Shown: positions 163 to 23,769 of the stretch, in pieces | How the letters are laid out: each line of letters opens with the position of its first letter | Numbering within the stretch: the first letter of the stretch is position 1 | Assembly (NCBI GenBank): GCA_002778785.1 | Contig: PEZS01000001.1 | Coordinates: 391,673-415,673 of the forward strand | From: Bdellovibrionales bacterium CG10_big_fil_rev_8_21_14_0_10_45_34 | GTDB taxonomy: Bacteria; Bdellovibrionota; Bdellovibrionia; Bdellovibrionales; 1-14-0-10-45-34 | Direction of reading: 5' to 3' | DNA: 24,001 bases | Notes under the pieces: generated by a model | The model's database searches: none | What the model was told of the DNA's origin: nothing | What the model saw: only the letters and a program-made list of their open reading frames with translations | Translations under genes and position numbers: made by a program

Positions 163-1601
163 GCTGGTCTTCTTACAACACGTGGAGGCGGCACTGGTCT
201 TCTCACGGGCGGAGGAAGCACTCGGCGCGGTGGAATAACACCTCGTCTTGGCGGCGGCACAGTCACCCGTCCGTAAGGCAAACAGTTGCGAGAACCGTAG
301 TTATATCTATGCCCGGCACCACACGTTCTTAGTCCAACATCTCTTTGGCAAAATCCTCCGAATCGCGTGTACCCGGGGCCGCAATAGTAATTGACGGTTG
401 ATACGCATCGTCCAACGTAAGGATTGTAAGCTTCTCTCCATCCGCAAAACGGGCGCACCCTCCGGCAACTTCCATAGGAGTAGTCATAGTAGTAACTCAT
501 TCCACAACGTGCATATATAGGAGAGCACGTTCCAGTGTAGTGGTCGTAGTAACTGCCAAAGCCGCAGCTCACACCAAAAACGTTGAAGCGAACGCATTCT
601 CTGATGGTCCAATCGTACCTGGATCCAATGGAACAAGTGTAAGGAAGCCTCATACATCTGTTATAAAAAGAGCTCCACTCGTAGTTCAGCGGGCAGCGAG
701 GATACGCATTGAGCACGCAGTATCCAAGGTAAGGATCGTAATAAGTACCAACGGAACACTGAAGATGCGGAGCCTGCGGATACGGCAAACAGCTATTAGA
801 CCGCGATTCGTAGTAAGTTCCTTCACCGCAAGCTTCTTGCCTGTTCGGAAGACAATGGCCTAGATCGCCATCATAGTAGTAGCCAGGAGCACACTGATAG
901 CCGTCCTCATCTTTCGCATTGATCGAGACCTGAAACTGCCGAAAGTTTTGAACTCCGTCTCTGTCTCGCAGGTTTACGATGAAGTAATGCGTTCCGATTT
1001 GTGTGGAATTTCCGCTCAGAACAAATTTTTCGTCCGCGTTCAAAAACGCCAGACTCATCCCTTCGGGAATCTCCCCCTCAAAGAATTCACCTATGATTGG
1101 CTTTCGTTCGGGATTGTCAAAGGTCTCAATGGTTGCGCTGTAGGCTTCGCCCTCATCCGCGAATGGAAGCAAGCTCTCAGTAAGAAAGCGCGGATACTGA
1201 AGACTGTCGTTATCCTCAGAATAGACACAAACGTTTCTTGAGCGAACAACATTTGAAACAGAAGTCTTAACACTAAGTACAAAACACCATTGGCCTGTGA
1301 ACTCAGGTGCTCCCTTAAGTAGCAATGTCTGGTTTGAAATTTGCTCTAACTCTAACCCAAATGGAACAGGAGCTTTACCCACATCCCAAGTGATCTCCTG
1401 CTGGACTGATCTAGAAAGAGTGATCTCTGTTTCGCCGTAAGACGCGAATTTATAAACGGCGTCGTCTTGCGAATAGACGATTTCAAACCCATCTTCTGCA
1501 GAGTTTGGTGTTTGTGATAGCGATTGTTGCCCCAGTCCGAAGACAGCGACGAGTGGCGTTAGATAAGTTAGCCATCGCCGCGGACGCGGTTGATCTTGCA
1601 T
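1..1601 (-). CDS. secreted Cys-rich repeat protein, C-terminus off the window
   Basis: The frame is open without a stop from ATG 1601 to the window edge, about 533 codons. I chose ATG 1601 because GGGGGA sits 5 nt upstream; an in-frame ATG at 1613 is the alternative. Residues 1-30 look like a Sec signal peptide: basic N-terminus with RPRR, then a hydrophobic stretch ending near GLGQQSLSQ. Residues about 150-235 resemble an Ig/cadherin-like fold, with a GMSLAFL...LSGNSTQIGTHYFIVNLRDRDG pattern split across strands. Residues about 236-450 hold roughly nine short Cys repeats of the form C-x2-G-x-Y-Y-(D/E)-x5-6-C. A Pro/Arg region follows, then tandem RPPTST hexapeptides made by an 18-bp minisatellite. 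The fold and export are inferred; the cellular role is unknown. It could be a surface or periplasmic adhesion or structural protein. The C-terminus is outside the window. Confidence 0.85.
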   Translation of the reverse strand, partial: MQDQPRPRRWLTYLTPLVAVFGLGQQSLSQTPNSAEDGFEIVYSQDDAVYKFASYGETEITLSRSVQQEITWDVGKAPVPFGLELEQISNQTLLLKGAPEFTGQWCFVLSVKTSVSNVVRSRNVCVYSEDNDSLQYPRFLTESLLPFADEGEAYSATIETFDNPERKPIIGEFFEGEIPEGMSLAFLNADEKFVLSGNSTQIGTHYFIVNLRDRDGVQNFRQFQVSINAKDEDGYQCAPGYYYDGDLGHCLPNRQEACGEGTYYESRSNSCLPYPQAPHLQCSVGTYYDPYLGYCVLNAYPRCPLNYEWSSFYNRCMRLPYTCSIGSRYDWTIRECVRFNVFGVSCGFGSYYDHYTGTCSPIYARCGMSYYYDYSYGSCRRVRPFCGWREAYNPYVGRCVSTVNYYCGPGYTRFGGFCQRDVGLRTCGAGHRYNYGSRNCLPYGRVTVPPPRRGVIPPRRVLPPPVRRPVPPPRVVRRPATTRPPTSTRPPTSTRPPTSTRPPTSTRPPTSTRPPTSTRPPTSTRPPTSTRPP

Positions 1602-1745
1602 GATTTCCCCCATTGAAAGTTTAGTTAACGTTAGCTCCCCTAGGTGCAAGGGCAAAACTTATGCCGCCGTCTGCCGACTTGTTGTGTCTTTAATTTAGCG
1701 ATGAGAGAATTTTGGTGTCTTTATGACTTCACTGATGTGGTGTCG

Positions 1746-7024: not shown

Positions 7025-7101
7025 GGGGTGGTAGTTAAGTTGGTTATAACGCTCGCCTGTCACGCGAGAGGCCGCGGGTTCGAGTCCCGTCCACCCCGCC
7101 A
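7025..7101 (+). tRNA. tRNA-Asp (anticodon GTC)
   Basis: All arms fold. The acceptor stem is GGGGTGG/CCACCCC, the discriminator is G and an encoded CCA ends at 7101. The anticodon stem CTCGC/GCGAG encloses CTGTCAC, giving anticodon GTC at 7059-7061. The T arm contains TTCGAGT. The total is 77 nt. The gene is intact although mobile DNA begins at its 3' end. The antisense strand of its 3' part encodes the tail and stop codon of the large serine recombinase. Confidence 0.97.
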
Positions 7102-8726
7102 TTTACATCTGATACAGAAAAATAGTCCTCCACCGTGACAGAGGACACGACAGCCGGCACTCGATACGCTGGCCCATCCGTAAAAAACTCAACCTCCATA
7201 CGATTGCCGTCCAAAATTAAAATTCTTTTTACGATCCGCTCAATGAGTGTGCGCTTCTGAGTTTGAGTCAAGGTATCGAACCCTTGAAGGACCTTTTTCA
7301 CATAAACTTGCAATGACTCAAGGCCATTGTCGTTTTTCAACTCCGACAGTGTCGACCTAGCTTTTTCGATCTCTTTTTCAAGCGACTGCTTTCGGTACTT
7401 CAAGGTTTCAGCTTCCTTAGATAACAGCTCTTCGAATGCTGTGCTCATCGGCTGACTCAAAGATTCAACCAGCCTTTGACGGAGTATATCTTCTTGCCTG
7501 CGAGTCTCGGCCAACTGATTTTCATATCCCTTAAGTTCAGCTTGCAATGCAGGAACCTTGGTTTCTCGCAGCCGGACTGAGTCCTTTACCATCTGTTCGA
7601 ATTTCTCATGTTTCAAAAATTGATCTTTGACCAAGTTGATAACGAATGGATCAATTTCATCACAGCGAATTCTTAATCCTTTGTGCTTTCGATTGTTGTA
7701 ATAGCGATGCTCACTACTCTTAGCACCCTCACCAGAGAAACTTGAGCCGTCTTGATAAAAGAGCCGACCTGAAAGCAAGTAGACATAATCCCGAACCCCA
7801 ACCTTGAGATTGGATGCTCTGAGTAGCTGGTGCTTAGTTACCACCGCCTCAAGAAGAGTTTCTTCAACGACTGGGCCATGTTCCAATTTAACTAGTTGAT
7901 ATCTTTGAAACTCAGAAAGTGAACTTTCATCAACATCCTTGTTATGGCGGTTGGCCTCCCAATAGCCAAGATATCGGAGTCGGCAATTCTCCAGTATTGT
8001 TGAAAGCTGGGAATGGGTTATCTTAGATCCATCAGGATTTGTGATGCCCTCCTTCTCCAGACGCTTTATTGTAGCGAGGATTGTTGGCTCCTCTAAAAAT
8101 ATGCCTAGGACTTTTCTCAAGATGGGCACGCCTACCGGATCAATAACGAAGTGGCCTCTACGGCTTGGATCACGCTTAAGGCCGAGGACCTCTGCTGACC
8201 CATTGATCTTGCCATTTTTAATCAGTCTAGCAATGCAGTTTTCTCGAAGTCTATGAGATGTGATTTCACGCTCTGCTTGTGCCACCGCCATCAAAATTGT
8301 AACGACCATCTTGCCAACAGGAGTGGTCGTGTCGATGTCTTGCCCAATTACTAACACAGATACATTGCTCTTCTCGCACAGGCTCATGAAGTCGAGAAAG
8401 TCCATCACTGATCGGCTTATTCGGGCAAGCTCGGGAGTTACCACAAACTTGATCTTCTGTTGACGAATCAGATGGGTCAGCCTGTGAAAGCCAGGACGAT
8501 TTGTGTTCTTACCCGAGTAACCCTCGTCAACGATATGTTCAGATATTTCATATTGTAAATTGCTGGAGTTCGATTTGAATGCCATGTGTTGTGTACATCT
8601 CGCCTTGTGAGCTTCTGGTGACGCATCTTCTTTTCTTAATCCCGCTTCGTCAGTTATCTGACCTAGCGTCGATATCCGTGTGTAACTCACTCCGATGATA
8701 GGCTGATTGTTATTGGTCTTTGCCAT
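7044..8726 (-). CDS. large serine recombinase (integrase) ending inside the tRNA
   Basis: A 560-residue protein. The N-terminal resolvase domain has catalytic Ser19 in SYTRISTLGQ and the helix E ERE motif before SHRLREN. A recombinase DNA-binding domain (about 180-270) follows. A region at about 310-370 is where relatives carry a zinc ribbon (LLSGRLFYQDGSSF), but the Cys residues are absent here. A coiled coil lies at about 395-500. It should integrate and excise the element. I chose ATG 8726, preceded by AAGGA at 8-nt spacing; 28 upstream in-frame residues lack a good site. It overlaps the previous gene by 17 bp. The last roughly 18 residues (from GGVDGTRTRG) and the stop are the antisense of tRNA-Asp, so they depend on the integrated state. 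Confidence 0.9.
   Translation of the reverse strand: MAKTNNNQPIIGVSYTRISTLGQITDEAGLRKEDASPEAHKARCTQHMAFKSNSSNLQYEISEHIVDEGYSGKNTNRPGFHRLTHLIRQQKIKFVVTPELARISRSVMDFLDFMSLCEKSNVSVLVIGQDIDTTTPVGKMVVTILMAVAQAEREITSHRLRENCIARLIKNGKINGSAEVLGLKRDPSRRGHFVIDPVGVPILRKVLGIFLEEPTILATIKRLEKEGITNPDGSKITHSQLSTILENCRLRYLGYWEANRHNKDVDESSLSEFQRYQLVKLEHGPVVEETLLEAVVTKHQLLRASNLKVGVRDYVYLLSGRLFYQDGSSFSGEGAKSSEHRYYNNRKHKGLRIRCDEIDPFVINLVKDQFLKHEKFEQMVKDSVRLRETKVPALQAELKGYENQLAETRRQEDILRQRLVESLSQPMSTAFEELLSKEAETLKYRKQSLEKEIEKARSTLSELKNDNGLESLQVYVKKVLQGFDTLTQTQKRTLIERIVKRILILDGNRMEVEFFTDGPAYRVPAVVSSVTVEDYFSVSDVNGGVDGTRTRGLSRDRRAL
7125..7146. promoter_or_regulatory. dyad just downstream of the tRNA
   Basis: GTCCTC and GAGGAC are perfect 6-bp arms around a 10-nt centre, 23 nt past the tRNA CCA end and inside the 3' end of the recombinase gene. 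There is no U-tract. It may be part of the recombinase attachment site, or a hairpin that limits tRNA read-through. Confidence 0.3.
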
Positions 8727-9048
8727 ATTGTTTTTCCTTTCCAAGGGTCCATTCACATAACTCCTTGATAGTTTGTTGTACGGTGGATCTTTCTGCAGGT
8801 ACTCCGGCAACTACCTTAAAGGTTTTCGATAGGTCGATAGTTCGTCGGGTAGTCCTTGCCATTTGTTGCCGCCGTTTCTGTTTTTTTCGTTCTCGCTTTG
8901 TTTTAAGCTCGCAAGCTTTACATTGACTCGATAGTCGCTGCCCCTTGGTATAAAACTGCGTCGGTGATTTCAGCCGTTTACATCGAGAGCAAGTTTTCTG
9001 TTGGGTAAGAATAAGCTCCATCAACGTCGGATCAAGGATTTTCGCCAT
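8710..9048 (-). CDS. small Cys4 zinc-finger-like basic protein
   Basis: A 112-residue protein of unknown function. Residues about 20-47 have two C-x2-C pairs (CSRC and CKAC) 24 residues apart, in a QKTCSRCKRL...FYTKG pattern typical of short zinc ribbons found near HNH nucleases and phage genes. A very basic segment (KTKRERKKQKRRQ) follows, suggesting DNA binding. The C-terminal half is probably helical. ATG 9048 has GGGAGG with 6-nt spacing. It overlaps the gene before it by 17 bp and the recombinase after it by 17 bp, so it is part of the same operon. It could be a directionality or accessory factor for the recombinase, but that is inferred from position alone. Confidence 0.72.
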   Translation of the reverse strand: MAKILDPTLMELILTQQKTCSRCKRLKSPTQFYTKGQRLSSQCKACELKTKRERKKQKRRQQMARTTRRTIDLSKTFKVVAGVPAERSTVQQTIKELCEWTLGKEKQYGKDQ

Positions 9049-9868
9049 TGAAAACCTCCCGTTGTTCTTGCTTCATTTCTTGCAATGCCAAGTAATGACG
9101 CTTGCGAGGATAGCCGTAGGTGATGCCTCGAGTTCCACTCAACAAGCGCAGACCTTTGATTCGTTGAGGATCAGTCATTGCATCCATGAAGTTCGACCAG
9201 AAATACTCCAAGAGTCCTTCAACATCGTAGGCAACTGAACGAGCGACGAAGACCCTCTGCTCAGGAGGCAGATACTTCTTGCAGAGACGTTGGAATATCT
9301 GCAATTTATCGCCAGGGATTAGGTAGTGAACGTGTGGCGTGCTTGACTCAGGGTCCACGGACAGGCAACGAATGAAAGGTCCAATCTTTCCAGTAAGGTA
9401 CTTTGACAGACCACTTGAGAGAGTTAGCAGTCTGTACCAAGCGTCGCTCGGATCCCCGATGAGCGAAATCGTACAGTGAAAGATCATGCCTCTGCTGAGT
9501 GCAAGCAGAGTCGCCGCCTCGACGAAGTAAGACTTCCTTCGATCTTCACATCCTTCGCACTCCAATCGCTTACACGGACGGTAGGCTCCTCCGCACTTCC
9601 AGATTCGAACCTTCTGCCCACTGCGTGCTGTAATGACCGTAGCTCCCGCTCTATCTGAATGGTCATGCCTTGGACTGCAAAAAAGTTCGTTAGCACTTAC
9701 TTCAAGAGCTTCAGCAATCAAAATCTTTTCAGTTTTTCTTGGACGAGTTCGTAGTTCTAATATCGCATCAAGCCGAGTCGCACTTATGCCTGTCTTGTCA
9801 GAAAGTATATTGGTCTTCATCCCTTTGAGGATCATTTCTGTAGCAAATGCCTTGTTAAGCCTTTCCAT
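9032..9868 (-). CDS. HTH plus HUH Rep-like replication initiator
   Basis: A 278-residue protein. Residues about 10-62 look like a lambda-repressor-type HTH (ILSDKTGISATRLDAIL). Next are four Cys (92, 99, 104, 107). Then comes a motif-1-like strand (IFHCTISL, 129-136) and PHVHYLIPG at 178-186, which has the HUH metal-binding pattern of rolling-circle Rep proteins. EYFWSNF (221-227) may supply the catalytic Tyr, although the usual Lys four residues later is missing. The Cys cluster, F-x-T strand and HUH order resembles RepSA-type initiators of integrative elements. ATG 9868 follows GAGGA and overlaps the upstream HTH gene by 14 bp. The Rep role is an inference; a DNA-binding relative without nicking activity is the alternative. 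Confidence 0.6.
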   Translation of the reverse strand: MERLNKAFATEMILKGMKTNILSDKTGISATRLDAILELRTRPRKTEKILIAEALEVSANELFCSPRHDHSDRAGATVITARSGQKVRIWKCGGAYRPCKRLECEGCEDRRKSYFVEAATLLALSRGMIFHCTISLIGDPSDAWYRLLTLSSGLSKYLTGKIGPFIRCLSVDPESSTPHVHYLIPGDKLQIFQRLCKKYLPPEQRVFVARSVAYDVEGLLEYFWSNFMDAMTDPQRIKGLRLLSGTRGITYGYPRKRHYLALQEMKQEQREVFNGENP

Positions 9869-10100
9869 TTTGATCCTCAGTATTCATGGGACTCGACGTA
9901 GATTTGCTAATTTGAGGGTTTACTTCTTGCGACTTTATCCATGCGGCTATTCTGTGAAAACTGAATCGCACAAGTCGCTTTCCGAGACGGATATGTGGAA
10001 TCTGTCTGCGAAAAACGAGGCTGTAGATCGTACCTATCGGCAGTCCTGTCATCTCAGATACAGCTCTGTAGTCTAAGAGGTTGTCTTGGTGTTCCTTCAT
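9855..10100 (-). CDS. AlpA/excisionase-type HTH protein
   Basis: An 81-residue protein with a MerR/HTH_17-type fold: LLDYRAVSEMTGLPIGTIYSLVFRRQIPHIRLGKRLVRF-like pattern, ending with an AAWI recognition wing. Proteins of this kind act as excisionases or as regulators of integrative elements. I chose ATG 10100, which has AAGGAGGT 4 nt upstream; the longer start at 10115 overlaps that ribosome binding site. It is the first gene of the leftward replication/integration operon and is divergent from the 215-residue orphan gene. Confidence 0.85.
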   Translation of the reverse strand: MKEHQDNLLDYRAVSEMTGLPIGTIYSLVFRRQIPHIRLGKRLVRFSFHRIAAWIKSQEVNPQISKSTSSPMNTEDQNGKA

Positions 10101-10264
10101 AGGGACCTCCTTCATTTATGTCCATGCAGGCATAAGTAAGGGGTCTGACCCAATTCGTCCTTGGTAAATCAGTTGCGAGTAAAATACCAAACGTTCCCAG
10201 CAACCTGTTCCTTGTCAGCCATGCAAACTTAAGCGAAACTCCTAGCTATCTCAGGAGTTAAGCA

Positions 10265-10912
10265 ATGAATGAAAAGAAAAAGAACAGACGACCCAAAAGT
10301 AAGCCGAGTACTACAAACAAAAATTTGGATTTGGATTGGACGGCAATTTACAGATTGGCCTGCCTAATTTTCGCTGCAGAGACAGCCGAAGAGTACAATA
10401 TGCCAGAAACTGCCTTGATGGTACGACGAGCAAAATCCGCAATCAAAAAAACCAACGAGGATTTCTCCAAATTGATAAAGGCTCAAGAGAAATTAGCCCT
10501 CTATGTTTTCTCAGTCGAGTTAGCTGAGTCCCTTGGAATACTTTATGACGAAGTGAGAGGGAACAACCTTGATGAAAAAGATGTGCCTGAACTCATAAGA
10601 AATATAGCAGTAAAGTTTTCTACCTTTAAGATTCTTGACAAGCGAAAGATACTCGAAAAACTCGATTATGCGGCATTTGCAGTTAAGGTCGAAAGGAAAA
10701 GAGGGGCCAAAGGTTCTAAGGAGTTGGCCTATGAAACAGTTCAAAAGGTTCTTGGTATTTCATCTGAAACCCAGCAGCACGCTGCAAAGGACACAACTAA
10801 ATTTTGGACGATGCTCTTTCCTGAGCAGTCTGGCCAGGGGGACTTCTCAGACCAGTTGCTAAACTTGGTAGTTGAAAAATCTTTCGGCAAAACCTCTCGC
10901 TCAAAAGATTGA
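10265..10912 (+). CDS. unknown 215-residue protein of the mobile element
   Basis: I do not recognise a family. The protein is soluble, has no signal peptide or membrane segment, starts with a basic tail (MNEKKKNRRPKSK) and looks mostly helical. ATG 10265 follows AGGAG with 7-nt spacing, which supports a real gene. It is divergent from the AlpA-type regulator and convergent with the AAA ATPase, with 21 bp between stops. Its place between the integration operon and the ATPase suggests a replication or maintenance role, but no motif shows this. Confidence 0.75.
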   Translation: MNEKKKNRRPKSKPSTTNKNLDLDWTAIYRLACLIFAAETAEEYNMPETALMVRRAKSAIKKTNEDFSKLIKAQEKLALYVFSVELAESLGILYDEVRGNNLDEKDVPELIRNIAVKFSTFKILDKRKILEKLDYAAFAVKVERKRGAKGSKELAYETVQKVLGISSETQQHAAKDTTKFWTMLFPEQSGQGDFSDQLLNLVVEKSFGKTSRSKD

Positions 10913-10933
10913 TTTCCCGTGTTCCTTATATAG

Positions 10934-11947
10934 CTATTCAACTATCGACGAATAGAGAAACGCATGACCTCTTTGACCCGTGCCGGAGCGGTTGACCTTT
11001 CCTGATTCTACAAGAGACCTAAGTGATTTTCGTAGCATGGTGGTTTTGCCTGAAACGCTATCGACAATCTCACGCTCCGTGAGAGCTTGATCAGCATTTT
11101 CCAGTAACTCTAGAATTTGTGAGCCGAGCCGTTGGGTTTCGATGTTCTCTAGAAGTGAACCGGATTCAATCCAACCCGTGCAAGGATCATATTCTAAGAC
11201 CGTCGGAGGCAAGTCGTGGCCGTACCGCTGCTGACTTTCAATAATCCTATACTCTGATGTGCGTCTAAGAAGTAGAGTGCAATCCATAGAGCCATGAACA
11301 GCGACGCTACCAAGAACGCTGTCCAAAGAATCCGCACGCTCTGATTTTCCGGCGTGGTGGACTGCTAAGATGTGTACCCCAGTTTTTCGGGCCAAGTCTG
11401 AAACTGGTGTCAGAGCTTCAAGCACCTGAGTGTAGGAGTTTGTATCAAAGCACCTTGTGAACCGAAAAATTGTATCAATTATTACGAGGCTTGGCTCATG
11501 AGCTTCAATAGCTCGCTCTAGAATCCCGTATCTATCGCCATTAACTGAACCACAGTGGACCCAGATTTTATCCTCCGAGTCTGCTCCGAGCCGTTGGAAT
11601 TCTTTTTTCAACATCGTTCGATGGTCCTCTAGACTGAAGAACAAGACTCCCCCTTGCTTGACCGTGCGACCTAGAAACTCATGACCTCGTGCCACTGCCT
11701 GGGCAAGACATCTGGTGAGTGTGGATTTTCCTGCCTTTGGCTTTCCCGCAAGTAAGCTGAATCCACCCCGGAGCAACAAGTCGTTGATGACCCACTCATT
11801 GTGTTCGGATGGTTCATTGAGTAGGTCGCCGACTCGGGTCAGAGTAAAAGACTGCAAGGCCGACTTATTTTGTTGCTTATGAATGTCTAACTCGTCGAAG
11901 TCTGACCAATCCAATTGGACCCCCAAGTTGTTTTGTTGGTAGCCCAA
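10934..11947 (-). CDS. RepA-like AAA ATPase / RecA-fold helicase
   Basis: Up to 337 residues. The RecA-type ATPase core is clear: Walker A GKPKAGKST near residue 68 and Walker B LVIIDTI near 150, with HHAGKS near 195 as a sensor-like motif. This fits the AAA_25/RepA family of hexameric plasmid helicases. Residues about 280-337 resemble a winged helix (LTEREIVDSVSGKTTMLRKSL pattern). The start is uncertain: a stop lies just upstream, and only TTG codons are available (11947; 11914 has GGGGG 5 nt upstream). It lies next to the iteron region, so it probably helps start replication of the excised element. Confidence 0.87.
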   Translation of the reverse strand: MGYQQNNLGVQLDWSDFDELDIHKQQNKSALQSFTLTRVGDLLNEPSEHNEWVINDLLLRGGFSLLAGKPKAGKSTLTRCLAQAVARGHEFLGRTVKQGGVLFFSLEDHRTMLKKEFQRLGADSEDKIWVHCGSVNGDRYGILERAIEAHEPSLVIIDTIFRFTRCFDTNSYTQVLEALTPVSDLARKTGVHILAVHHAGKSERADSLDSVLGSVAVHGSMDCTLLLRRTSEYRIIESQQRYGHDLPPTVLEYDPCTGWIESGSLLENIETQRLGSQILELLENADQALTEREIVDSVSGKTTMLRKSLRSLVESGKVNRSGTGQRGHAFLYSSIVE

Positions 11948-12512: not shown

Positions 12513-13100
12513 TTACAAATTGCTACAGCCCTTAAGATAGTTCACGACTGTGCCATGAGAAATTCCAAGCTCTCTAGATATCGCTCGCAGGGTCATGCCC
12601 TTTGCTCGAAGCTTTAACACCTCATCCTTGCTGCCGGCCTGTGGTCGCCCCAACTTCTTTCCTTTAGCCCGAGCATTGTGAACCCCAGCAATCACTCGCT
12701 CCCTTAGGATCTCCCGCTCAAAACTTGAAAGAGCTGCAAGGACGGTCGCAACCACTCTCCCGATGGGTGTAGAGAGGTCAAAGCCTTCTTGGTGCGATAC
12801 TAGAGAAACCTGAAGGTTCTGAAGCTCATCAAGGATAGTTAGTAGGTGTCTTGAATTGCGGCCAAGTCTATCCAGCCGCCAGACAATCACAAAATCAAAC
12901 TTTCGCTGGCGAGCCATCCTCATCATCCGATCCAATGCCGGGCGACTATCCTTTGTGCCACTGACTCCATGATCTTGAAAGGTCTCAATCAACTGAAGGC
13001 CACGGGCTTCAACATAGCAACCGAGGTCATTAAGCTGGATGTCTAAGTTCTGTTGGACAGTGGAGCATCTAACATAAATTGCAGCCCGTTGGCCGATCAC
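12513..13100 (-). CDS. small serine recombinase (resolvase/invertase)
   Basis: A 195-residue protein, the usual length for Tn3-resolvase and Hin-type recombinases. Catalytic Ser13 lies in YVRCST. Supporting motifs are DHGVSG (about 43-48), RLDRLGR (about 74-80) and FEREILRERV...GKKLGRP. A C-terminal HTH (LRAISRELGISHGTVVNYL) binds DNA. The start is GTG 13100, overlapping the upstream stop by 4 bp (GTGA), so translation is coupled to the secreted protein gene. It may resolve multimers of the excised element or invert a segment. The repeat-rich region directly downstream could hold its target. Confidence 0.93.
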   Translation of the reverse strand: MIGQRAAIYVRCSTVQQNLDIQLNDLGCYVEARGLQLIETFQDHGVSGTKDSRPALDRMMRMARQRKFDFVIVWRLDRLGRNSRHLLTILDELQNLQVSLVSHQEGFDLSTPIGRVVATVLAALSSFEREILRERVIAGVHNARAKGKKLGRPQAGSKDEVLKLRAKGMTLRAISRELGISHGTVVNYLKGCSNL

Positions 13101-15692: not shown

Positions 15693-15908
15693 ATGACTCC
15701 TACTAGCTGGCTATCAGTTGAGCAACTTGCGGAATACCTGAGCATATCCAAAGAGACAGTCTATCGCTGGCTCGAAAAAGGCACGGTACCAGCCCATAGG
15801 GTTGGCAAGCTATGGCGTTTCCAAACAAAAGAGATTGATGAGTGGGTTAAGTGTGGTGGCGCAGCTATGCACCCAATAAAAAATGCCAACGGTCAGTTAA
15901 CAAAATAA
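15693..15908 (+). CDS. excisionase-type HTH protein opening the defence operon
   Basis: A 71-residue protein of the HTH_17/MerR-like excisionase family: WLSVEQLAEYLSISKETVYRWLEKG, then VPAHRVGKLWRF and EIDEWV. I chose ATG 15693, which has GAGGTG at 6-nt spacing; the GTG at 15684 lies inside that site. It precedes the methyltransferase by 15 bp. It may be a controller of the restriction-modification genes, which usually delays the nuclease until DNA is methylated. That role is inferred from position. Confidence 0.88.
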   Translation: MTPTSWLSVEQLAEYLSISKETVYRWLEKGTVPAHRVGKLWRFQTKEIDEWVKCGGAAMHPIKNANGQLTK

Positions 15909-15923
15909 TTTTAAGGAATCTCA

Positions 15924-16817
15924 ATGCAATTGAAGCTAATAGATACAGATAAAAAAATCGTCAAGTCAAAGAAATCTGGCATAGTTAACATTGCATCGGT
16001 CCCGCAGCGAAGCCCATTCCGCTATCCAGGTGGCAAGACATGGTTTGTACCAACACTTCGAAAGTGGCTTTCATCAAAATCAAAAAGACCAGAACTATTG
16101 ATTGAACCTTTTGCGGGTGGGGGAATAGTTGGTCTTACTGCAGCTTTTGAAAACTTGGCGGAGCGAGTTCTATTAATTGAACTCGATCCCAACGTTGCTG
16201 CTGTTTGGGAGGTTTTAATTGATGGAGACTATGAAGGTTTAGCCAAGAAAATTTTAAACTTTAACCTGTCTTACGAAAGCGCAAAGTCCACTCTTGAAAG
16301 AGCGCCAAAATCGACTGACGATAAGGCTTTTCATACAATATTGCGTAACAGAGTCAGCCACGGTGGGATTATGGCACCTGGAGCAGGTCTTATAAAAAAT
16401 GGCGAAAATGGAAAAGGCATTTCGTCTCGCTGGTATCCCCAAACCTTAGCTCGGCGGATTAGAGATATCGGCTCAATCAGATCGAAAATATCGTTTGTTC
16501 AAGGCGACGCACTAAAGGAAATTGAAGACTTCTGTGACGATAAGAATACTGCATTTTTCATAGACCCACCTTACACAGCAGCTGGAAAAAAGGCCGGGCG
16601 CAGACTCTACTCACATCATAGCCTTGATCACGATTTACTTTTCAAAATGATGAAATACTCAAAGGGCGATGTCCTTTTTACTTATGACAATTCAGAAGAC
16701 CTAGTTGAATTAGCATCATCTCATAATTTCGAAACACAACTTATTCCCATGAAAAACACTCATCATGCAGAAATGACCGAACTGATAGTTGGAAAAGACC
16801 TAAAATGGCTAAAGTAA
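15924..16817 (+). CDS. D12-class DNA adenine N6-methyltransferase
   Basis: A 297-residue protein of the Dam/DpnM (MethyltransfD12) family. Motif X PFRYPGGK is at 31-38, the AdoMet-binding motif I EPFAGGG at 61-67 and the catalytic motif IV DPPY at 214-217. Family members transfer a methyl group to N6 of adenine. ATG 15924 follows AAGGA. It overlaps the NotI-like nuclease gene by 13 bp, so it is very probably the protecting methyltransferase of that nuclease. The target sequence cannot be read from the protein, but should contain an adenine. Confidence 0.93.
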   Translation: MQLKLIDTDKKIVKSKKSGIVNIASVPQRSPFRYPGGKTWFVPTLRKWLSSKSKRPELLIEPFAGGGIVGLTAAFENLAERVLLIELDPNVAAVWEVLIDGDYEGLAKKILNFNLSYESAKSTLERAPKSTDDKAFHTILRNRVSHGGIMAPGAGLIKNGENGKGISSRWYPQTLARRIRDIGSIRSKISFVQGDALKEIEDFCDDKNTAFFIDPPYTAAGKKAGRRLYSHHSLDHDLLFKMMKYSKGDVLFTYDNSEDLVELASSHNFETQLIPMKNTHHAEMTELIVGKDLKWLK

Positions 16818-17704
16818 AAATTAAGAGTCTTCCTAAAAATCCATTGGCTGAAGTGTTTGGACATAAAACAGCGGATAAATCTGCATCTGCTCGAAAGCAT
16901 AGAAGCAAAGAACTATGCCCATTTAACAATATTGTTCCTGAATGTACGAAAGATCGTAAAGATTCACCACTAGCTGTTTGTAGCATCTACGACAAAGAGG
17001 ACATCGTTATAGTTTGTCCTGTCAGATTTCGAGAAGGTTGGAAAATTTCTAAAGATGCCGCAGAATTTTTCTATGGCACCTCTAAGAATTGTACAGCTCT
17101 TAGAGAAGTTCGACTAAAGGAAAAAAATGGAAAATCTGCTGGGAATATTGATCTCGTGATTGCTAAGCATGACTCGAAAGGTAAAGTCCTAGATTTTGGT
17201 GCTGTAGAGGTACAGTCGGTCTATGTTTCTGGCAATATCAGAAACCCATTTGAGTACTACATGGAGGACCCAGAAAAACGGTCAGATATGGATTGGTCCA
17301 AAGAAAAGCATTATCCAAGTCCTGACTTTCTTTCGTCGTCACGTAAACGACTAGCTCCGCAAATGATATACAAGGGGCAAATTCTAAGAGCTTGGAGCAA
17401 AAAACTTGCTGTTGTTGTTGATAGACCGTTTTTCAACACACTTCCAATTATTAACCAAACCAGCAAAGAAAAAGCCGACGTATGCTGGCTCATCTATGAA
17501 CTAATTGAACATAATGGAAAGTATGAGTTAACCCTAAGCGAACGAGTGTACACCTCCTGGGAGGACGTATTTAGAAGTATCGCAAATCCTGACATTGGCG
17601 ACATATCAGATTTTATTTCTGTGCTAGAGCAAAAACTTTCAACAATTGAGCAATTTAACAAGTCATCAAAAAACATCAATGTATACGAGTGGGCTGAACT
17701 GTGA
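16805..17704 (+). CDS. NotI-family restriction endonuclease
   Basis: A 299-residue protein. Cys38, Cys47, Cys59 and Cys71 (in CPF, PEC, AVC and ICP contexts) match the four-Cys iron site known in NotI. The nuclease core has Asp116 in GNIDLVIAK and Glu135/Gln137 in GAVEVQSVYVSG, the D...E-x-Q version of PD-(D/E)XK used by NotI. The early NPLAEVFGH motif also fits. It should cut double-stranded DNA at a specific site left unmethylated. It overlaps the methyltransferase by 13 bp and the HerA gene by 4 bp. NotI itself cuts an all-GC site, so pairing with an adenine methyltransferase implies a different target. Confidence 0.88.
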   Translation: MAKVKIKSLPKNPLAEVFGHKTADKSASARKHRSKELCPFNNIVPECTKDRKDSPLAVCSIYDKEDIVIVCPVRFREGWKISKDAAEFFYGTSKNCTALREVRLKEKNGKSAGNIDLVIAKHDSKGKVLDFGAVEVQSVYVSGNIRNPFEYYMEDPEKRSDMDWSKEKHYPSPDFLSSSRKRLAPQMIYKGQILRAWSKKLAVVVDRPFFNTLPIINQTSKEKADVCWLIYELIEHNGKYELTLSERVYTSWEDVFRSIANPDIGDISDFISVLEQKLSTIEQFNKSSKNINVYEWAEL

Positions 17705-19776
17705 AGAATATAAGTAATTTAAAAAACGAGAACAATAGGGCATCCAGTAGTCCCTCATTTAAGCAGATCAAAACAGTGAAGGATCTAGTGCAAGGTGAAA
17801 ATTTTATTGGATGGGCGTACTACATCGACTACCAAAAAGCACATATTTTAACGAATGATCTTTGGAAGTTTCAAATAAACGGCATTCCTCATAATTGCTT
17901 TCTAATTGCTGCGTCCTTCGACCCAAGCTCAATCGATGAAGTCGATGAAATAGACCAAGAGGTTATCCTATTACGAGTCACCGGCACCACAAAATTGCCT
18001 CAGGATGACGATCTAGTGAGGGGACGTATTGATTATTACCAGCAGCAAAAAGATGCCTTCAAAGAAAAAGGATTGGATCCTATCACATTGAATCAAATGC
18101 AGTTTGGGGGTCTTGAGTGCCGAGTCCTGGGAACATTTTATGTTCGGGATGGGAATCTGTGGCTTGGAAGCGATGTTGAATCTTTTCCTTCTGCCTCAAG
18201 GCTGAGGGCCTTCAGGCCAAATGGCGAAATCCTTGAAACAATTGTGAACTATATCGACCCCATCAGAAAACAAAAATCAATTGATGATGCAAAAGAAATT
18301 GGACTTAGACACCCTCCAGCTCCATTTTATATTGGAACGGTAAGATATACTTCAACTACTCGGCTTCAAACAAAAGCGGGAGAGCAAGTCCGAGTTTCTA
18401 TCCAACCATCTGACTTTCTTGCTCGGCGAACTGCTGTCTTGGGCATGACCAGAACAGGAAAGTCAAATATGATTAAACAACTTGTTAGTGTTGTGCTCAA
18501 AACTAGCAAAGATGGAAATCTTCCGATTGGTCAACTGGTTTTCGATTTAAACGGTGAGTATGCGAACGCAAACAAGCAAGATCATGGCTCCATTGCAGAT
18601 GTATTCCCAACCCGCACAGTCCGTTATCGTATGATTGATACCGATGGATTTTTACCGCTTCAAAATAACTTTTACGAACAGTTAGCCGATGGCTTTGCTC
18701 TACTCAGTGAGCTTTTAACAGAAAAGAAAAACTCTGGAGGCGATGTCCAGCATTTCCTCGGTCTATCATTTGATCAACCGGAGAGTGGCGATTGGGGTGA
18801 GATTTCTAAATTCAGCATTAAGAAAGCCGCATATTGGGGATTGCTATGCAGATCTGGTTTCAAAACAAATTCTAAGCTCGTTACAAAGTTTAAGGTAGCA
18901 AAAGAAGTTAATGAGATAGTCTCCTCTTACCTAAATGATGGCGACGGTCTGGAGCCAGAAAATGGTATGACTCCAGAGGAATGTAGAAATTGGTTTTCAG
19001 CTCTAAGAGAAGCTTACAAAGATGAGCAAAAATCTGAAAAATCATCAAGATCAAAATCGAAAAATGATGACGAAGGCGAGGATGATCGAAAATCGAACAA
19101 GAAAAAAACAATCTCGAAATGGGTAGATAGTAAAGATGATGCCCGAGCGATGATGAACATGATGTGCCAGAAAAATGAAAAAGATTCTTTTATCTTAGGT
19201 TTTCAGTTGCTCACGGATATTGCTAAGTTCCATACGCCCAACAGAAGTAGCGAGGTTGGAGTTGAGATCTACGGGCACCTAGCCCAAGGGAAAGTTGTGA
19301 TATTAGACCTATCAGTTGGGAGGCCAAGCCTTCGAGAGCGCATAACTAAAAAAATTGCGGAAAAAGTCTTCAACTTATCTATGGATAAATTTGTTTCCGG
19401 AACAACTCCCCCAAATGTTGTTTTGTACATCGAGGAAGCTCACAACCTCATTGGTAAGGACTCCGACCTCGATGACACTTGGCCAAGAATTGCGAAGGAG
19501 GGTGCCAAGTATAAAATCAGCCTAGTTTATGCTACACAAGAGGTTTCTGCAATGCACCCAAATATTCTGGCGAACACTGAAAATTGGTTTATCACTCACT
19601 TAAACAACATAAGAGAAGTAAACGAACTTTCAAAATTTTATGATTTTGGTGATTTTTCTGACTCACTAATAAGAGCACAGGACGTTGGATTTGCTCGGGT
19701 AAAAACATTGTCAGGCCCCTATGTTGTACCTGTGCAGATTGATAAGTTTGACCCTGCCGTCCTGAAGGAAAAGTAA
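17701..19776 (+). CDS. HerA-type hexameric DNA translocase
   Basis: A 691-residue protein. Residues about 205-240 resemble the HAS barrel (PFYIGTVRYT...VRVSIQPSDFLARRTAVLG). Walker A is GMTRTGKSN (248-256), FDLNGEY (281-287) matches the HerA DPHGEY-type motif, and Walker B is VVLYIEEAHNL near 573-583, followed by RIAKEGAKYKISLVYATQ. The N-terminal 200 residues are specific to this family. Residues about 441-470 are a charged low-complexity insert (Ser/Lys/Asp). The start is GTG 17701, sharing GTGA with the upstream stop. HerA proteins pump DNA and work with NurA, whose gene follows with no gap. Confidence 0.92.
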   Translation: MKNISNLKNENNRASSSPSFKQIKTVKDLVQGENFIGWAYYIDYQKAHILTNDLWKFQINGIPHNCFLIAASFDPSSIDEVDEIDQEVILLRVTGTTKLPQDDDLVRGRIDYYQQQKDAFKEKGLDPITLNQMQFGGLECRVLGTFYVRDGNLWLGSDVESFPSASRLRAFRPNGEILETIVNYIDPIRKQKSIDDAKEIGLRHPPAPFYIGTVRYTSTTRLQTKAGEQVRVSIQPSDFLARRTAVLGMTRTGKSNMIKQLVSVVLKTSKDGNLPIGQLVFDLNGEYANANKQDHGSIADVFPTRTVRYRMIDTDGFLPLQNNFYEQLADGFALLSELLTEKKNSGGDVQHFLGLSFDQPESGDWGEISKFSIKKAAYWGLLCRSGFKTNSKLVTKFKVAKEVNEIVSSYLNDGDGLEPENGMTPEECRNWFSALREAYKDEQKSEKSSRSKSKNDDEGEDDRKSNKKKTISKWVDSKDDARAMMNMMCQKNEKDSFILGFQLLTDIAKFHTPNRSSEVGVEIYGHLAQGKVVILDLSVGRPSLRERITKKIAEKVFNLSMDKFVSGTTPPNVVLYIEEAHNLIGKDSDLDDTWPRIAKEGAKYKISLVYATQEVSAMHPNILANTENWFITHLNNIREVNELSKFYDFGDFSDSLIRAQDVGFARVKTLSGPYVVPVQIDKFDPAVLKEK

Positions 19777-21174
19777 ATGCCTTACAAGGGGGAACAAGCT
19801 AATAAGGCTTCATACTTTGACATCATCAAAAACCCTGACGTTTCATCATTTTTAGAGTCATGTAGGTTTCTTCGAAATCCATCAGATCAAGAAATTAAAG
19901 AAATCACCAATCAGTTTCAGCCCATGAAAATTGAGCCCTTGGGAGATGAGCCCCTGTATTTAATTGCGACAGACGGAAGTTTTTACGAGGCCTCAGTTAG
20001 CGACAGATTTCCCAGCACAAAAATTGCGTATGTGAAATTTGGAACTATCTTAATCAAGCTAAGTGAGTACCGAAATCTAAAACACGAAAATACTCACCTA
20101 CTTGACCCCTTCAAGGTAGCAGCTCTTGAGGACAACAATCGCTCAGTTACATTAACATTGCCTAGTTCAAATATCACACTCGAGGGGAAGAAGAGTGTAA
20201 CAGAGAGCTTTAGATATGCACTTGACCGATGGTTCAAGGATTTGCGCACAACTATTGATGACAGTGACCCAGAATCTTCATTGATTTATACTCTTGCTGA
20301 ACTTGAATCAAGACGACATCCTTCAACGCACAAACGAGGCTTTATTAATGTTCACAAGTGCCCCACTTGCAAAAGTCCCGATCACCTGAATTTAGATGTC
20401 CCGCTCATAGAGCCTGGGTATTGCCCTAACTGTAACTCTGAAATTTATTCAACCGATTGCCTGAGGTTATGGGAAGAAATTTCAGAATATCAGTCAAACG
20501 GAACAGTTCTCGGCCGGCTAATGATGCTTATTGAACACCTACTTCCAGTCCATTACACACGTTATTTGTTAAAAAACAATCCAGACATACTTGGATCAAC
20601 TGTATTTTTTGTTGATGGACCTCTGGCACTTTTCGGAACTGCTGCCTGGCTACATAGACCGATTATGGAATTTAATTACCAAGTAGGAAAAGATCTTAGA
20701 TCAAAAGGCTTATCAGGGCCTGTGACAATTAGTCTTCAAAAAACTGGACAGATTGCAGATTTCTCAAGGTTACTAGAACATGATCTGGGAAGATCACACC
20801 TTCTACTTCTATCAGATGACTATCGCTATAGTTATGTTCTTAATGGACGTGAACCAGCTGATGTGTGTTTTGGAGATGAAACTTACTATGGACAGGACTT
20901 TATTTTCAAAAGTGAAACAGGCAGGTGCTTTGTATTTGCCCTACCATATGAGACTGCTACGAAACGCCCAGTGGAAAAATTTATCTCAATGAAGGAACAA
21001 GTCAAAAATTATCCGACATTGGAGAAGGCACTTTCAATTACTCAGACTTTTGAGTCAGATTTGTATGATAACGCAGTTATCCCAATTGCACTTGCGCACA
21101 AATATACATCAATAAGCCTTTCTCCAGGTGGAAGAATTTTAGATTTGTTAAGTAAGTCTCTCGTGAAGCCGTAA
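19777..21174 (+). CDS. NurA-domain nuclease with zinc-ribbon insert
   Basis: A 465-residue protein. The NurA nuclease motifs are Asp66 in IATDGSF, Asp280 in FVDGPLALFG, an acidic DDYRY (347-351) and LAHKYTSISLS with His441 near the end. Between the first two lie CPTC (195-198) and CPNC (216-219), a Cys4 zinc ribbon absent from typical archaeal NurA. The family carries out Mn-dependent 5'-3' exonuclease and endonuclease cleavage and forms a ring with HerA. ATG 19777 directly follows the HerA stop, so the two are translated together. The zinc ribbon may bind DNA or the nuclease partner; this is inference. Confidence 0.85.
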   Translation: MPYKGEQANKASYFDIIKNPDVSSFLESCRFLRNPSDQEIKEITNQFQPMKIEPLGDEPLYLIATDGSFYEASVSDRFPSTKIAYVKFGTILIKLSEYRNLKHENTHLLDPFKVAALEDNNRSVTLTLPSSNITLEGKKSVTESFRYALDRWFKDLRTTIDDSDPESSLIYTLAELESRRHPSTHKRGFINVHKCPTCKSPDHLNLDVPLIEPGYCPNCNSEIYSTDCLRLWEEISEYQSNGTVLGRLMMLIEHLLPVHYTRYLLKNNPDILGSTVFFVDGPLALFGTAAWLHRPIMEFNYQVGKDLRSKGLSGPVTISLQKTGQIADFSRLLEHDLGRSHLLLLSDDYRYSYVLNGREPADVCFGDETYYGQDFIFKSETGRCFVFALPYETATKRPVEKFISMKEQVKNYPTLEKALSITQTFESDLYDNAVIPIALAHKYTSISLSPGGRILDLLSKSLVKP

Positions 21175-21246
21175 TTAAAATTATGGGCCTCATCGGAACT
21201 TAGTATCGAGAAAGTAGCTGCTTTGATAAAGTTGGAGGAATGTTTT

Positions 21247-23268
21247 ATGCCCGTTTGGAATGCAATAGATTTTCAGCAAGCACAGGCTTCACAAGCTACT
21301 GCCGCAAATGATCCAGCAAGGGTTGTGAGATTAGTCGCAGGACCAGGCACAGGGAAATCTTTCTCAATTGAACAAAAGGTAGCTAACCTTCTGCAAAGCG
21401 GTGTTACTGCCTCATCAATTTATGCAGTTTCATACACAAGGGCTGCGGCCACCGATCTAAAATTAAGAATTGAACAATTTTGTAATACTAGCGGTCTATC
21501 CATTACTGGTGGTATCAGAGCTTCAACTGTACATTCTCTTGCTTTGCGGATTCTGAGGTCCGCCGGGATCCTAGGTGCTCAGTACCCAGTTGATCCGATG
21601 GTGCTGGATAACTGGGAAGTTGAAAATATATTCGACTTAGAGTTTAATCATATTACACGCTTTGGTAAACCAAGATGCGCAGAAATCAGAAGTTATTGGG
21701 AGGCTTTCTGGAGTACAGGCAACCAATCGCACCCAAGTTACAAGCCACCAGCTAGTCCGATTACACAACAGGAACAAACTCAATTTACTGGATTCAAAAA
21801 TAGGCGATCTAATTTATATTCATGTGTTCTGCCCGGGGAAATCGTACAGCAAGTTGTACAAAGAGCGATAGCAGGAACTCTAAATGTTCAGCAAGTTCTA
21901 AATATTTCCCATTTGATCGTGGATGAGTTCCAGGATCTTAATCCAATGGATCTAGAGTTGATGCAGATTCTTATTTCAGCTGGGGTTCAGCTGTTTGCGT
22001 CAGGAGACGATGATCAAAGTATTTATTCATTTCGATATGGCTCTCCCGAGGGGATTAGAAATTTACCTTTGCAAAATCAAGGCGTTGGTCAACATATGCT
22101 CGGGCATTGCTTTAGATGTACACCAAGCGTGCTAAACCCTGCTGTTCAGCTAATGGCCACTTACTCGGACCCTCAGCGAATTCCTAAAACATATATTTCG
22201 ATGTATTCAAACTCTGCTCCATCAGTGCTGGGAAGTTTTCATCGATGGATGTTCAGTACTCACAGGGGCGAAGCTCGTGCGATCGCTGATTCTTGTCAAA
22301 ACCTAATTAATAGTGGACTGAACCCGAAAGATATTCTGATCCTTATTTCAAACAAACGTATCCAGCTCGGTGTTATTGAGGATGAACTAAGGCAACGCAA
22401 TCTTAACTTCGATTCGCCAAATAACCCGGGGATTCAAGATACAGACGAGGGGCGATTGATAGTTGCATTGATGCGGCTTATTTGTAACAACGATGATTAT
22501 ATTTCTCTGAGAACAATATGGGGATTGCGGTCTGGTATTGGCCCAACTCAGACGGAGACATTGGCTACATGGATTACAAATAATCAGCAAAACTTTAAGA
22601 CCATCTTTTTCCAGAATCTTCCGTTAACTAATTTGCAGCAGAGAACTGCATCTTCGGTGCAAGTATTGAGAGGTTTAGTCAACACAATCACTGGATGGGC
22701 AAAGACTGATACTCTTGGGTGTAGAAATGCAGATATAATCGCAATCTTGAACACCATTTCGGGCCAAGCTGCTGTCGCTTTGTGGACCTCTGCAGTACAA
22801 GGAATAGATTCAAATGCTTTACTTTCAGAAGTTCGAGACTTCCTTTGGACTGAGAGCGACGAACAGAAGTCGCAAGTTCTTGCTGCAATTTCTGATAGAC
22901 TCGAATTAGAGCACACACCGAATACTCTGCCAGACAGAATACGGATTATGACCATGCATGGTTCTAAGGGTCTATCAGCAAAAGTTGTATTTATTCCTGG
23001 TTTGGAGGAGCAAATTCTTCCAGGCCCTAATCGTATAGTATCGCCAGGGCTAACTCAGGAGGCCGCACGACTACTATATGTTGCGATAACTCGAGCAAAA
23101 GCGAGTTGCATAGTTTCTCTTGCGCAATCTCGATTTGTGAACGGTAAAAGAAAGACACACGCTGCTTCGCAGTTTACTAATGCTCTCGGGGGTAGCTTTT
23201 CGACTAGGTCAACAGCCTTAACTTCTCAAGAGGTAAACCAAATTATGTCGGATATAAGTAGGTTATAG
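21247..23268 (+). CDS. UvrD/PcrA-like SF1 helicase
   Basis: A 674-residue protein. All SF1A motifs are present: Walker A AGPGTGKS (31-38), VSYTRAAATDL (Ia), TVHSLALRIL, DEFQD (226-230, II), GDDDQSIYSFR (253-263, III), FRCTPSVLNPA (IV), MTMHGSKGLSAKVVFIPG (V) and LLYVAITRAKA (VI, Arg616). Such enzymes unwind DNA 3' to 5' using ATP. I chose ATG 21247, which has GGAGGA at 7-nt spacing; the TTG at 21223 has none. A 72-bp gap separates it from the NurA gene with no terminator, so it is probably the last gene of the operon. No nuclease domain is fused to it. Confidence 0.93.
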   Translation: MPVWNAIDFQQAQASQATAANDPARVVRLVAGPGTGKSFSIEQKVANLLQSGVTASSIYAVSYTRAAATDLKLRIEQFCNTSGLSITGGIRASTVHSLALRILRSAGILGAQYPVDPMVLDNWEVENIFDLEFNHITRFGKPRCAEIRSYWEAFWSTGNQSHPSYKPPASPITQQEQTQFTGFKNRRSNLYSCVLPGEIVQQVVQRAIAGTLNVQQVLNISHLIVDEFQDLNPMDLELMQILISAGVQLFASGDDDQSIYSFRYGSPEGIRNLPLQNQGVGQHMLGHCFRCTPSVLNPAVQLMATYSDPQRIPKTYISMYSNSAPSVLGSFHRWMFSTHRGEARAIADSCQNLINSGLNPKDILILISNKRIQLGVIEDELRQRNLNFDSPNNPGIQDTDEGRLIVALMRLICNNDDYISLRTIWGLRSGIGPTQTETLATWITNNQQNFKTIFFQNLPLTNLQQRTASSVQVLRGLVNTITGWAKTDTLGCRNADIIAILNTISGQAAVALWTSAVQGIDSNALLSEVRDFLWTESDEQKSQVLAAISDRLELEHTPNTLPDRIRIMTMHGSKGLSAKVVFIPGLEEQILPGPNRIVSPGLTQEAARLLYVAITRAKASCIVSLAQSRFVNGKRKTHAASQFTNALGGSFSTRSTALTSQEVNQIMSDISRL

Positions 23269-23271
23269 GAT

Positions 23272-23769
23272 TCAGTTCGCATGAGCTACTTTTGACGAAG
23301 CTAACACCCGCTTCACCATCTCGGGATGCCACTTTTTCCCACGGCACTTAGTTGATATACCCATCTGATCAAGCACCTTGGCAATCTGCCGAAGAGACAG
23401 TCCCTGTGCCTTCATTTCCTGAATGGCTGTGATGACTCGTTGTTCAGCCTTAAACTCGGTGCTCCTCCCTTTGACCACTTTCTGACCATATCTGGGCTGT
23501 GATGGGTTTCCATGATGTCGAGACTTCTCTCGGATCGGGATCTGATACCTCTCAAGGCCCCGCCGCACGGCTTCCTTGGAGGAACCGATCAGCCTCGAAA
23601 TTTGCGCTATTGAGAGGTTTTCTAGGGTGTATTTTTGGTGGAGGAATAGCGGGTCGTTGTAGGCTGGAATGTACGAAAACTCAGTGTTGACAACAAGTTG
23701 GAGTGGAGGAACTATTAACTCTGCTGTGCGGGAATGGTTCCCGCCATTTTGGGTATAAACCGGGCACAT
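23272..23769 (-). CDS. double-HTH DNA-binding protein, recombinase-like C-terminus
   Basis: A 165-residue protein with two HTH regions: FLHQKYTLENLSIAQISRLIGSSKEAVRRGL (about 43-75) and a C-terminal stretch with IQEMKAQGLSLRQIAKVLDQMGI...KWHPEMVKRVL, like the DNA-binding part of serine recombinases. There is no catalytic resolvase domain. The ATG at 23769 has no spaced ribosome binding site (AAAGG directly abuts it), so the true start may lie inside. It is convergent with the helicase, with 3 bp between stop codons. It may be a regulator or a recombinase remnant. Confidence 0.7.
   Translation of the reverse strand: MCPVYTQNGGNHSRTAELIVPPLQLVVNTEFSYIPAYNDPLFLHQKYTLENLSIAQISRLIGSSKEAVRRGLERYQIPIREKSRHHGNPSQPRYGQKVVKGRSTEFKAEQRVITAIQEMKAQGLSLRQIAKVLDQMGISTKCRGKKWHPEMVKRVLASSKVAHAN

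What the first reader, a model, noticed from the sequence alone, without database searches (positions are those of the whole stretch)
15693..23268. Composite defence operon: HTH, adenine methyltransferase, NotI-like nuclease, HerA, NurA, UvrD helicase
Seen: six genes in one direction with overlaps of 13 and 4 bp, gaps of 0 and 15 bp, and one 72-bp gap. All main catalytic motifs are intact. Known: D12 methyltransferases plus restriction enzymes form restriction-modification pairs; HerA-NurA is a pumping nuclease machine; UvrD-type helicases unwind DNA. Inferred: the restriction cut makes ends that HerA-NurA and the helicase then resect, so one cut destroys the whole invading molecule, much as RecBCD follows restriction in other cells. 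I cannot tell whether this exact set has been described.
Basis: partly seen in the sequence, partly recalled or inferred. Interest (0 to 1): 0.88.

Follow-up and report, generated by a model that had tools for sequence, protein, structure and literature searches.

The report
Restriction cassette joined to DNA-shredding pump
A bacterial genome carries an apparent anti-virus gene cluster in which a common, mobile cut-and-mark restriction kit has replaced the usual marking enzyme of a widespread but little-studied DNA-pumping nuclease, which lets us ask whether such defence parts are interchangeable.

Summary
The six genes are real, intact, on one strand and spaced as reported. Profiles and folds confirm an HTH protein, D12 adenine methyltransferase, NotI-fold nuclease, HerA, NurA and UvrD helicase. 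The exact set is not a conserved system; it is a hybrid. HTH-methyltransferase-NotI is a stand-alone mobile restriction-modification cassette: a same-order relative carries it at 58/74/71% identity with the same 13-bp overlap and no HerA. Of 53 NotI-family loci inspected, 41 abut this methyltransferase type and none is near HerA or NurA. HerA-NurA belongs to another widespread module: 63 of the 80 best HerA loci from about 85,000 genomes have NurA next to it, 58 of these a D12 methyltransferase nearby, none NotI. A tree puts the window's methyltransferase in the NotI-linked clade and all 60 HerA-linked ones on the other side (100/100). The closest solved relatives of HerA and NurA are TdpA and TdpB. 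UvrD is PcrA-like and not kin to helicases that follow NurA elsewhere. Best reading: two-stage restriction, NotI-like cutting of unmarked DNA, then HerA-NurA degradation; this coupling is inferred, not shown. No description of methyltransferase-HerA-NurA was found in the libraries searched.

The parts
15693..15908 (+). HTH_17/excisionase-type DNA-binding protein, probable regulator of the R-M cassette
   Evidence: Pfam HTH_17 3e-17; 58% identical HTH precedes MTase-NotI in L095, same order
15924..16817 (+). D12-class N6-adenine DNA methyltransferase of the NotI-linked clade
   Evidence: Pfam 1.8e-9; 74% to L095, 44-58% to most NotI neighbours elsewhere; tree 100/100 apart from 60 HerA-linked MTases
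16805..17704 (+). NotI-family restriction endonuclease (PD-(D/E)XK, D-ExQ variant, Cys cluster)
   Evidence: Pfam NotI 5e-56; AF2 model pLDDT 84 matches R.NotI 3c25 at Z 20.1; invariant D116, E135, Q137
17701..19776 (+). HerA-family DNA translocase, Tdp-like
   Evidence: DUF87; best PDB chain TdpA 8wet 2.6e-19, again best with a profile; up to 57% to HerA of MTase-HerA-NurA loci
19777..21174 (+). NurA-family RNase H-fold nuclease, TdpB-like
   Evidence: Pfam NurA; AF2 model pLDDT 89; Foldseek best 8wfd_G TdpB E 1e-7, VIA Z 19.3 against 14.6 for Sulfolobus NurA
21247..23268 (+). UvrD/Rep/PcrA-type superfamily 1 helicase, membership of the operon uncertain
   Evidence: Pfam UvrD 6.5e-34; 72-bp gap; closer to chromosomal PcrA/Rep types than to helicases after NurA elsewhere
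7025..7101 (+). tRNA-Asp, possible left edge of the surrounding mobile island
   Evidence: ARAGORN
7044..8810 (-). large serine recombinase whose 3' end overlaps the tRNA gene, possible island integrase
   Evidence: Pfam Resolvase 3e-26 and Recombinase

Best explanation
This is a hybrid defence operon. A mobile type II restriction-modification cassette (HTH regulator, D12 adenine methyltransferase, NotI-like nuclease) sits in front of a Tdp-like HerA-NurA translocase-nuclease module, in the place that this module's own methyltransferase usually holds. Shown: the anatomy, the two separate origins, the folds, and the tight junction (4-bp GTGA overlap). Inferred: the methyltransferase marks host sites, the NotI-like enzyme cuts unmarked invading DNA, and HerA-NurA loads on the ends and degrades the molecule. 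The helicase may help but is not established as part of it.
For: MTase tree: window nested in the NotI-linked clade, 60 HerA-linked MTases on the other side, 100/100. Cassette without HerA in the same order, with the same 13-bp overlap (L095). NotI-like genes abut this MTase type in 41 of 53 loci and are never near HerA or NurA. MTase-HerA-NurA: 63 of 80 loci have NurA, 58 of these a D12 MTase within 3.5 kb, 49 immediately upstream; relatives reach archaea, Chloroflexota, Bacillota, Pseudomonadota and Bdellovibrionota. A same-phylum relative (G275, apparently L015) keeps the usual MTase-HerA-NurA order. The partner MTase also differs in distant relatives: N6_N4_Mtase in L008 and L009. NotI fold Z 20.1; NurA to TdpB Z 19.3; HerA to TdpA. 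Archaeal HerA-NurA degrades dsDNA and has been proposed as antiviral (PMC12977600).
Against: No functional data. Only one example of the hybrid exists, so conservation cannot show that the two halves cooperate. Usual MTase-HerA-NurA loci lack a restriction nuclease, so HerA-NurA does not generally need a cut from one. Co-transcription is not shown. Only the best 80 of 481 HerA relatives were inspected. The long branches of the window's HerA and NurA could mean decay as well as adaptation, although both frames and motifs are intact.
Confidence: 0.5

Rival explanations
1. Two independent defence modules stacked in one island. The R-M cassette and HerA-NurA each act on their own; the junction is an accident of insertion next to a HerA-NurA pair that had lost its methyltransferase.
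For: Each module occurs without the other everywhere else inspected. HerA-NurA pairs without an adjacent D12 MTase exist, e.g. Nostoc and Tolypothrix plasmids L006 and L007. Mobile-element genes surround the locus.
Against: The 4-bp stop-start overlap between NotI and HerA suggests translational coupling, and the cassette occupies exactly the slot of the usual methyltransferase. A HerA-NurA pair without any self-mark would need another way to spare the host.
Confidence: 0.25
2. HerA-NurA is itself the restriction effector and reads the methylation mark, as a methyl-based counterpart of the Tdp system; the swapped-in methyltransferase supplies the mark and NotI is a backup nuclease.
For: The common MTase-HerA-NurA arrangement has no restriction nuclease, so HerA-NurA must act there without one. 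Both proteins have Tdp proteins as closest solved relatives. That the TdpAB machinery is governed by a DNA modification is my own knowledge; the paper is not in the library.
Against: The swapped methyltransferase is only about 21-33% identical to the usual partners and probably has another target site; direct reading of a changed mark would need adaptation. No evidence here that HerA-NurA senses methylation.
Confidence: 0.2
3. HerA-NurA and UvrD are DNA repair genes that by chance lie beside an R-M cassette.
For: HerA-NurA acts in end resection in archaea and Deinococcus (papers listed); UvrD helicases are repair enzymes.
Against: Patchy distribution (2 of 368 genomes of the phylum), regular linkage to DNA methyltransferases, kinship to TdpAB, and restriction genes next to several relatives.
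Confidence: 0.05

Closest known systems
Tdp system (TdpA-TdpB; PDB 8wet, 8wfd)
   Same: HerA-like translocase next to a NurA-fold nuclease; closest solved relatives of both window proteins, above classical HerA and NurA
   Different: The Tdp mark is DNA phosphorothioation (own knowledge); here an adenine methyltransferase and a NotI-like nuclease stand in front. TdpC was not searched for.
NotI-family type II restriction-modification (R.NotI, 3c25; plasmid and viral NotI-D12 pairs)
   Same: NotI fold with D-ExQ active site and conserved cysteines; adjacent methyltransferase of the same clade
   Different: Here the pair is joined to HerA-NurA, and the gene order is MTase then NotI instead of the commoner NotI then MTase
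D12 MTase-HerA-NurA loci found here (e.g. L010, L012, L013, L015, L043)
   Same: HerA and NurA are members (up to 57% and 48% identity), same order and tight spacing
   Different: The window's methyltransferase is from another clade and a restriction nuclease is added
HerA-SIR2, HerA-DUF4297 and DndFGH/HerA capture systems
   Same: A HerA/FtsK translocase coupled to a nuclease or effector in defence (PMC11291478, PMC10853773)
   Different: The partner nuclease here is NurA; no SIR2, DUF4297 or Dnd proteins
Gabija (GajB helicase)
   Same: The UvrD protein scores on GajB profiles
   Different: No GajA; the protein is longer and closer to PcrA/UvrD

Membership tests
NotI-family type II restriction-modification | NotI-fold nuclease with intact active site | tested here: met
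   Z 20.1 to 3c25; D116, E135, Q137 invariant
NotI-family type II restriction-modification | Adjacent DNA methyltransferase of the type that accompanies NotI-like genes elsewhere | tested here: met
   Tree and neighbourhoods
NotI-family type II restriction-modification | Methylation blocks cleavage at one shared site | not testable with these tools
   Needs enzyme assays or methylome data
MTase-HerA-NurA module | HerA followed directly by NurA, both of the family | tested here: met
MTase-HerA-NurA module | Methyltransferase of the HerA-linked clade beside them | tested here: not met
   Window MTase lies in the NotI-linked clade
Tdp | TdpA-like translocase and TdpB-like nuclease | tested here: met
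   Closest solved relatives; sequence identity to TdpB only about 13%
Tdp | Phosphorothioation gene TdpC | not tested
   No gene of that kind among the six; the rest of the genome was not searched
PD-Lambda-5 | Partner protein PD-Lambda-5_A beside the methyltransferase | tested here: not met
   Only the B profile hits (1.2e-38), no A profile among the six proteins
Gabija | GajA nuclease next to GajB | tested here: not met
   No GajA hit among the operon proteins or the next gene
MADS | Multi-gene mad1-mad8 set | tested here: not met
   mad1 profile hit below NCBIfam cut-off (68.5 of 80 bits), weak mad8 hit on HerA, no others
HerA-SIR2 / HerA-DUF4297 | SIR2 or DUF4297 partner | tested here: not met
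   Partner is NurA

The most novel reading that the evidence does not exclude
MTase-HerA-NurA is an undescribed, widespread methylation-based counterpart of the Tdp system, and the window is a natural experiment in which its self-marking enzyme was exchanged for a complete type II restriction cassette, so that a sequence-specific cut now feeds a processive DNA-degrading pump.
Probability: 0.35. Interest if true: 0.8.

Novelty: new variant of a known kind. Interest (0 to 1): 0.6.

Why it matters
HerA-NurA is debated as a repair or an antiviral machine. The conserved methyltransferase linkage found here argues for defence in these clades, and the window's swapped partner makes a clear question testable: does a HerA-NurA effector need its own mark, or any cut end? 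If restriction and processive degradation are coupled in one operon, a single cut would destroy the whole invading molecule without relying on RecBCD.

Tried and rejected
Searched PADLOC, NCBIfam and the paper library for a named MTase-HerA-NurA or NotI-HerA system: nothing found; no PADLOC profile hit the NurA proteins tried. The NotI-like sequence and its profile did not reach R.NotI in PDB by sequence; the fold did. NurA did not reach solved NurA by sequence; the fold did. The UvrD gene was considered an equivalent of the UvrD genes that follow NurA in 8 of 63 loci, mostly Anaerolineae; rejected because it scores 27-59 bits to those and 114-127 to PcrA-like proteins of the order. Looked for a direct repeat of the tRNA end as the far edge of an island: none of 20 bp or more within the 76 kb examined. 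Viral scan with the single NotI protein found nothing; with an alignment it found 17 loci.

Full report
Observation. The operon has lower GC (0.39-0.43) than its surroundings and lies among mobile-element genes: a tRNA-Asp with a large serine recombinase overlapping it, a second serine recombinase at 12513-13100 and recombinase or transposase-like genes to the right. The window is contig 1, 391673-415673, of a 3.06-Mb genome. A genome labelled same phylum (G275) has a contig of 33,610 bases with the HerA match, the same length as the contig of L015, a Bdellovibrionaceae MAG, so the host is inferred to belong to Bdellovibrionota.

Module 1, the restriction cassette. The NotI-like protein folds like R.NotI (model pLDDT 83.9; Z 20.1 to 3c25 over 271 residues). 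E101, D116, E135 and Q137 are invariant in the 14-protein alignment, and cysteines 38, 59 and 71 too. Its nearest relative (L095, same order) lies in an HTH-MTase-NotI cassette at 58, 74 and 71% identity, again with a 13-bp MTase-NotI overlap, followed by a DUF6880 protein and no HerA. NotI-family neighbourhoods inspected: 3 plasmids, 3 genomes of the phylum, 17 viral contigs and 30 stretches from genomes of three other phyla (those of L013, L043 and L012: Chloroflexota, Pseudomonadota, Bacillota). In 41 of 53 the window-type D12 methyltransferase is adjacent, often with the order reversed; several of the more distant ones have what looks like a cytosine methyltransferase instead. HerA or NurA is near none. 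No plasmid record listed for HerA is among those listed for NotI.

Module 2, HerA-NurA. A scan of about 85,000 species genomes found 481 relatives of the HerA protein; the best 80 were read. NurA follows directly in 63. A D12 methyltransferase lies within 3.5 kb in 58 of these and immediately upstream in 49; NotI in none. Four viral contigs and four plasmids also lack NotI. The hosts span Bacillota, Chloroflexota, Pseudomonadota, Bacteroidota, Cyanobacteriota, Spirochaetota, Bdellovibrionota, archaea and more. Most of the loci without NurA belong to a Verrucomicrobia clade of 14 HerA proteins, several beside an aspartyl-tRNA synthetase gene. Distant relatives in Halorarius and Deferribacter pair HerA-NurA with an N6_N4 methyltransferase, and cyanobacterial plasmids carry HTH-HerA-NurA without one. 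The partner methyltransferase therefore seems exchangeable.

Junction of the two. A tree of 75 D12 methyltransferases puts the window's protein with L095 (100/97) inside the NotI-linked clade, and all 60 HerA-linked ones on the other side of a 100/100 branch. The cassette thus came as a unit and stands where the HerA-linked methyltransferase normally stands. Both HerA and NurA of the window sit on long end branches (0.96 against a median of 0.22; 1.31 against 0.41), while the methyltransferase does not (0.21 against 0.34). This could reflect adaptation to a new partner, relaxed constraint or an unsampled deep lineage. The HerA tree was a quick build and the placement of long branches is unsure.

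Closest machine. The best PDB match of HerA by sequence is TdpA (2.6e-19; profile 5e-25), ahead of classical HerA. The NurA model (pLDDT 89) matches TdpB best (Foldseek 1e-7; Z 19.3 against 14.6 for Sulfolobus NurA). The Tdp papers themselves are not in the library, so statements on Tdp mechanism are from my own knowledge. Archaeal HerA-NurA degrades double-stranded DNA and was recently proposed to be antiviral (PMC12977600).

Helicase. UvrD follows after 72 bp. In 8 of 63 HerA-NurA loci a UvrD-type helicase follows NurA, in most of them with a further member of the same cluster next, in the case tested a PD-(D/E)XK protein, so a helicase there is recurrent. The window's gene is not kin to those: 27-59 bits against 114-127 to PcrA-like proteins of the order. 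Its membership is open.

Mechanism. Shown: two modules with separate histories, joined with a 4-bp stop-start overlap, all catalytic motifs intact. Inferred: methyltransferase marks self, NotI-like enzyme cuts unmarked DNA, HerA-NurA degrades from the ends. Alternatives are independent action and methylation sensing by HerA-NurA itself. Sequence data cannot decide among them.

Limits. Only the best 80 of 481 HerA relatives were read; many loci are cut by contig ends; neighbour genes were called from ORFs of 60 aa or more and blastp; the library holds no preprints and few subscription papers, so lack of a published description is weak evidence of novelty.

Noticed in passing
window 7025-8810: A large serine recombinase gene ends inside a tRNA-Asp gene on the opposite strand, a likely integration site of a mobile island; no far repeat of 20 bp or more was found in the 76 kb examined.
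   Followed up: partly
window 9032-11947: A 278-aa protein with an HUH-like PHVHYL motif (no Pfam hit), a small HTH_17 protein (9855-10115) and an AAA_25 RepA/DnaB-like ATPase (10934-11947) suggest replication genes of an integrated plasmid-like element.
   Followed up: no
window 12513-13100 and 23272-23769: A short serine recombinase (195 aa) and a protein ending in a partial Recombinase domain flank the defence region.
   Followed up: no
window 1-276: 18-bp tandem repeats encode a TRPPTS repeat at the C-terminal part of a predicted surface protein (3-1655, minus strand).
   Followed up: no
HerA 17701-19776, residues about 445-475: The window's HerA has a Lys/Ser/Asp-rich low-complexity insertion that is absent from the three relatives in alignment A1.
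   Followed up: no
L012-L014, L016-L018, L020, L031, downstream of NurA: Anaerolineae and a few other genomes have a UvrD-type helicase directly after NurA, in most loci followed by a smaller protein that is a PD-(D/E)XK nuclease in L013: an AddAB-like addition to HerA-NurA.
   Followed up: partly
L023-L029, L033, L034, L038, L045, L083, upstream of the MTase: Mostly clostridial MTase-HerA-NurA loci have an AlbA_2/Schlafen-like gene directly before the methyltransferase, a candidate further component.
   Followed up: partly
L041, L046, L047, L049, L054, L056, L089: Verrucomicrobia HerA relatives lack NurA and lie near an aspartyl-tRNA synthetase gene, perhaps a housekeeping branch.
   Followed up: no
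L165-L182 (Chloroflexota genomes): Window-type NotI genes are common in Chloroflexota (23 of 350 genomes) against 4 of 368 with any NotI-family gene in the window's phylum; some copies are broken by stops.
   Followed up: partly
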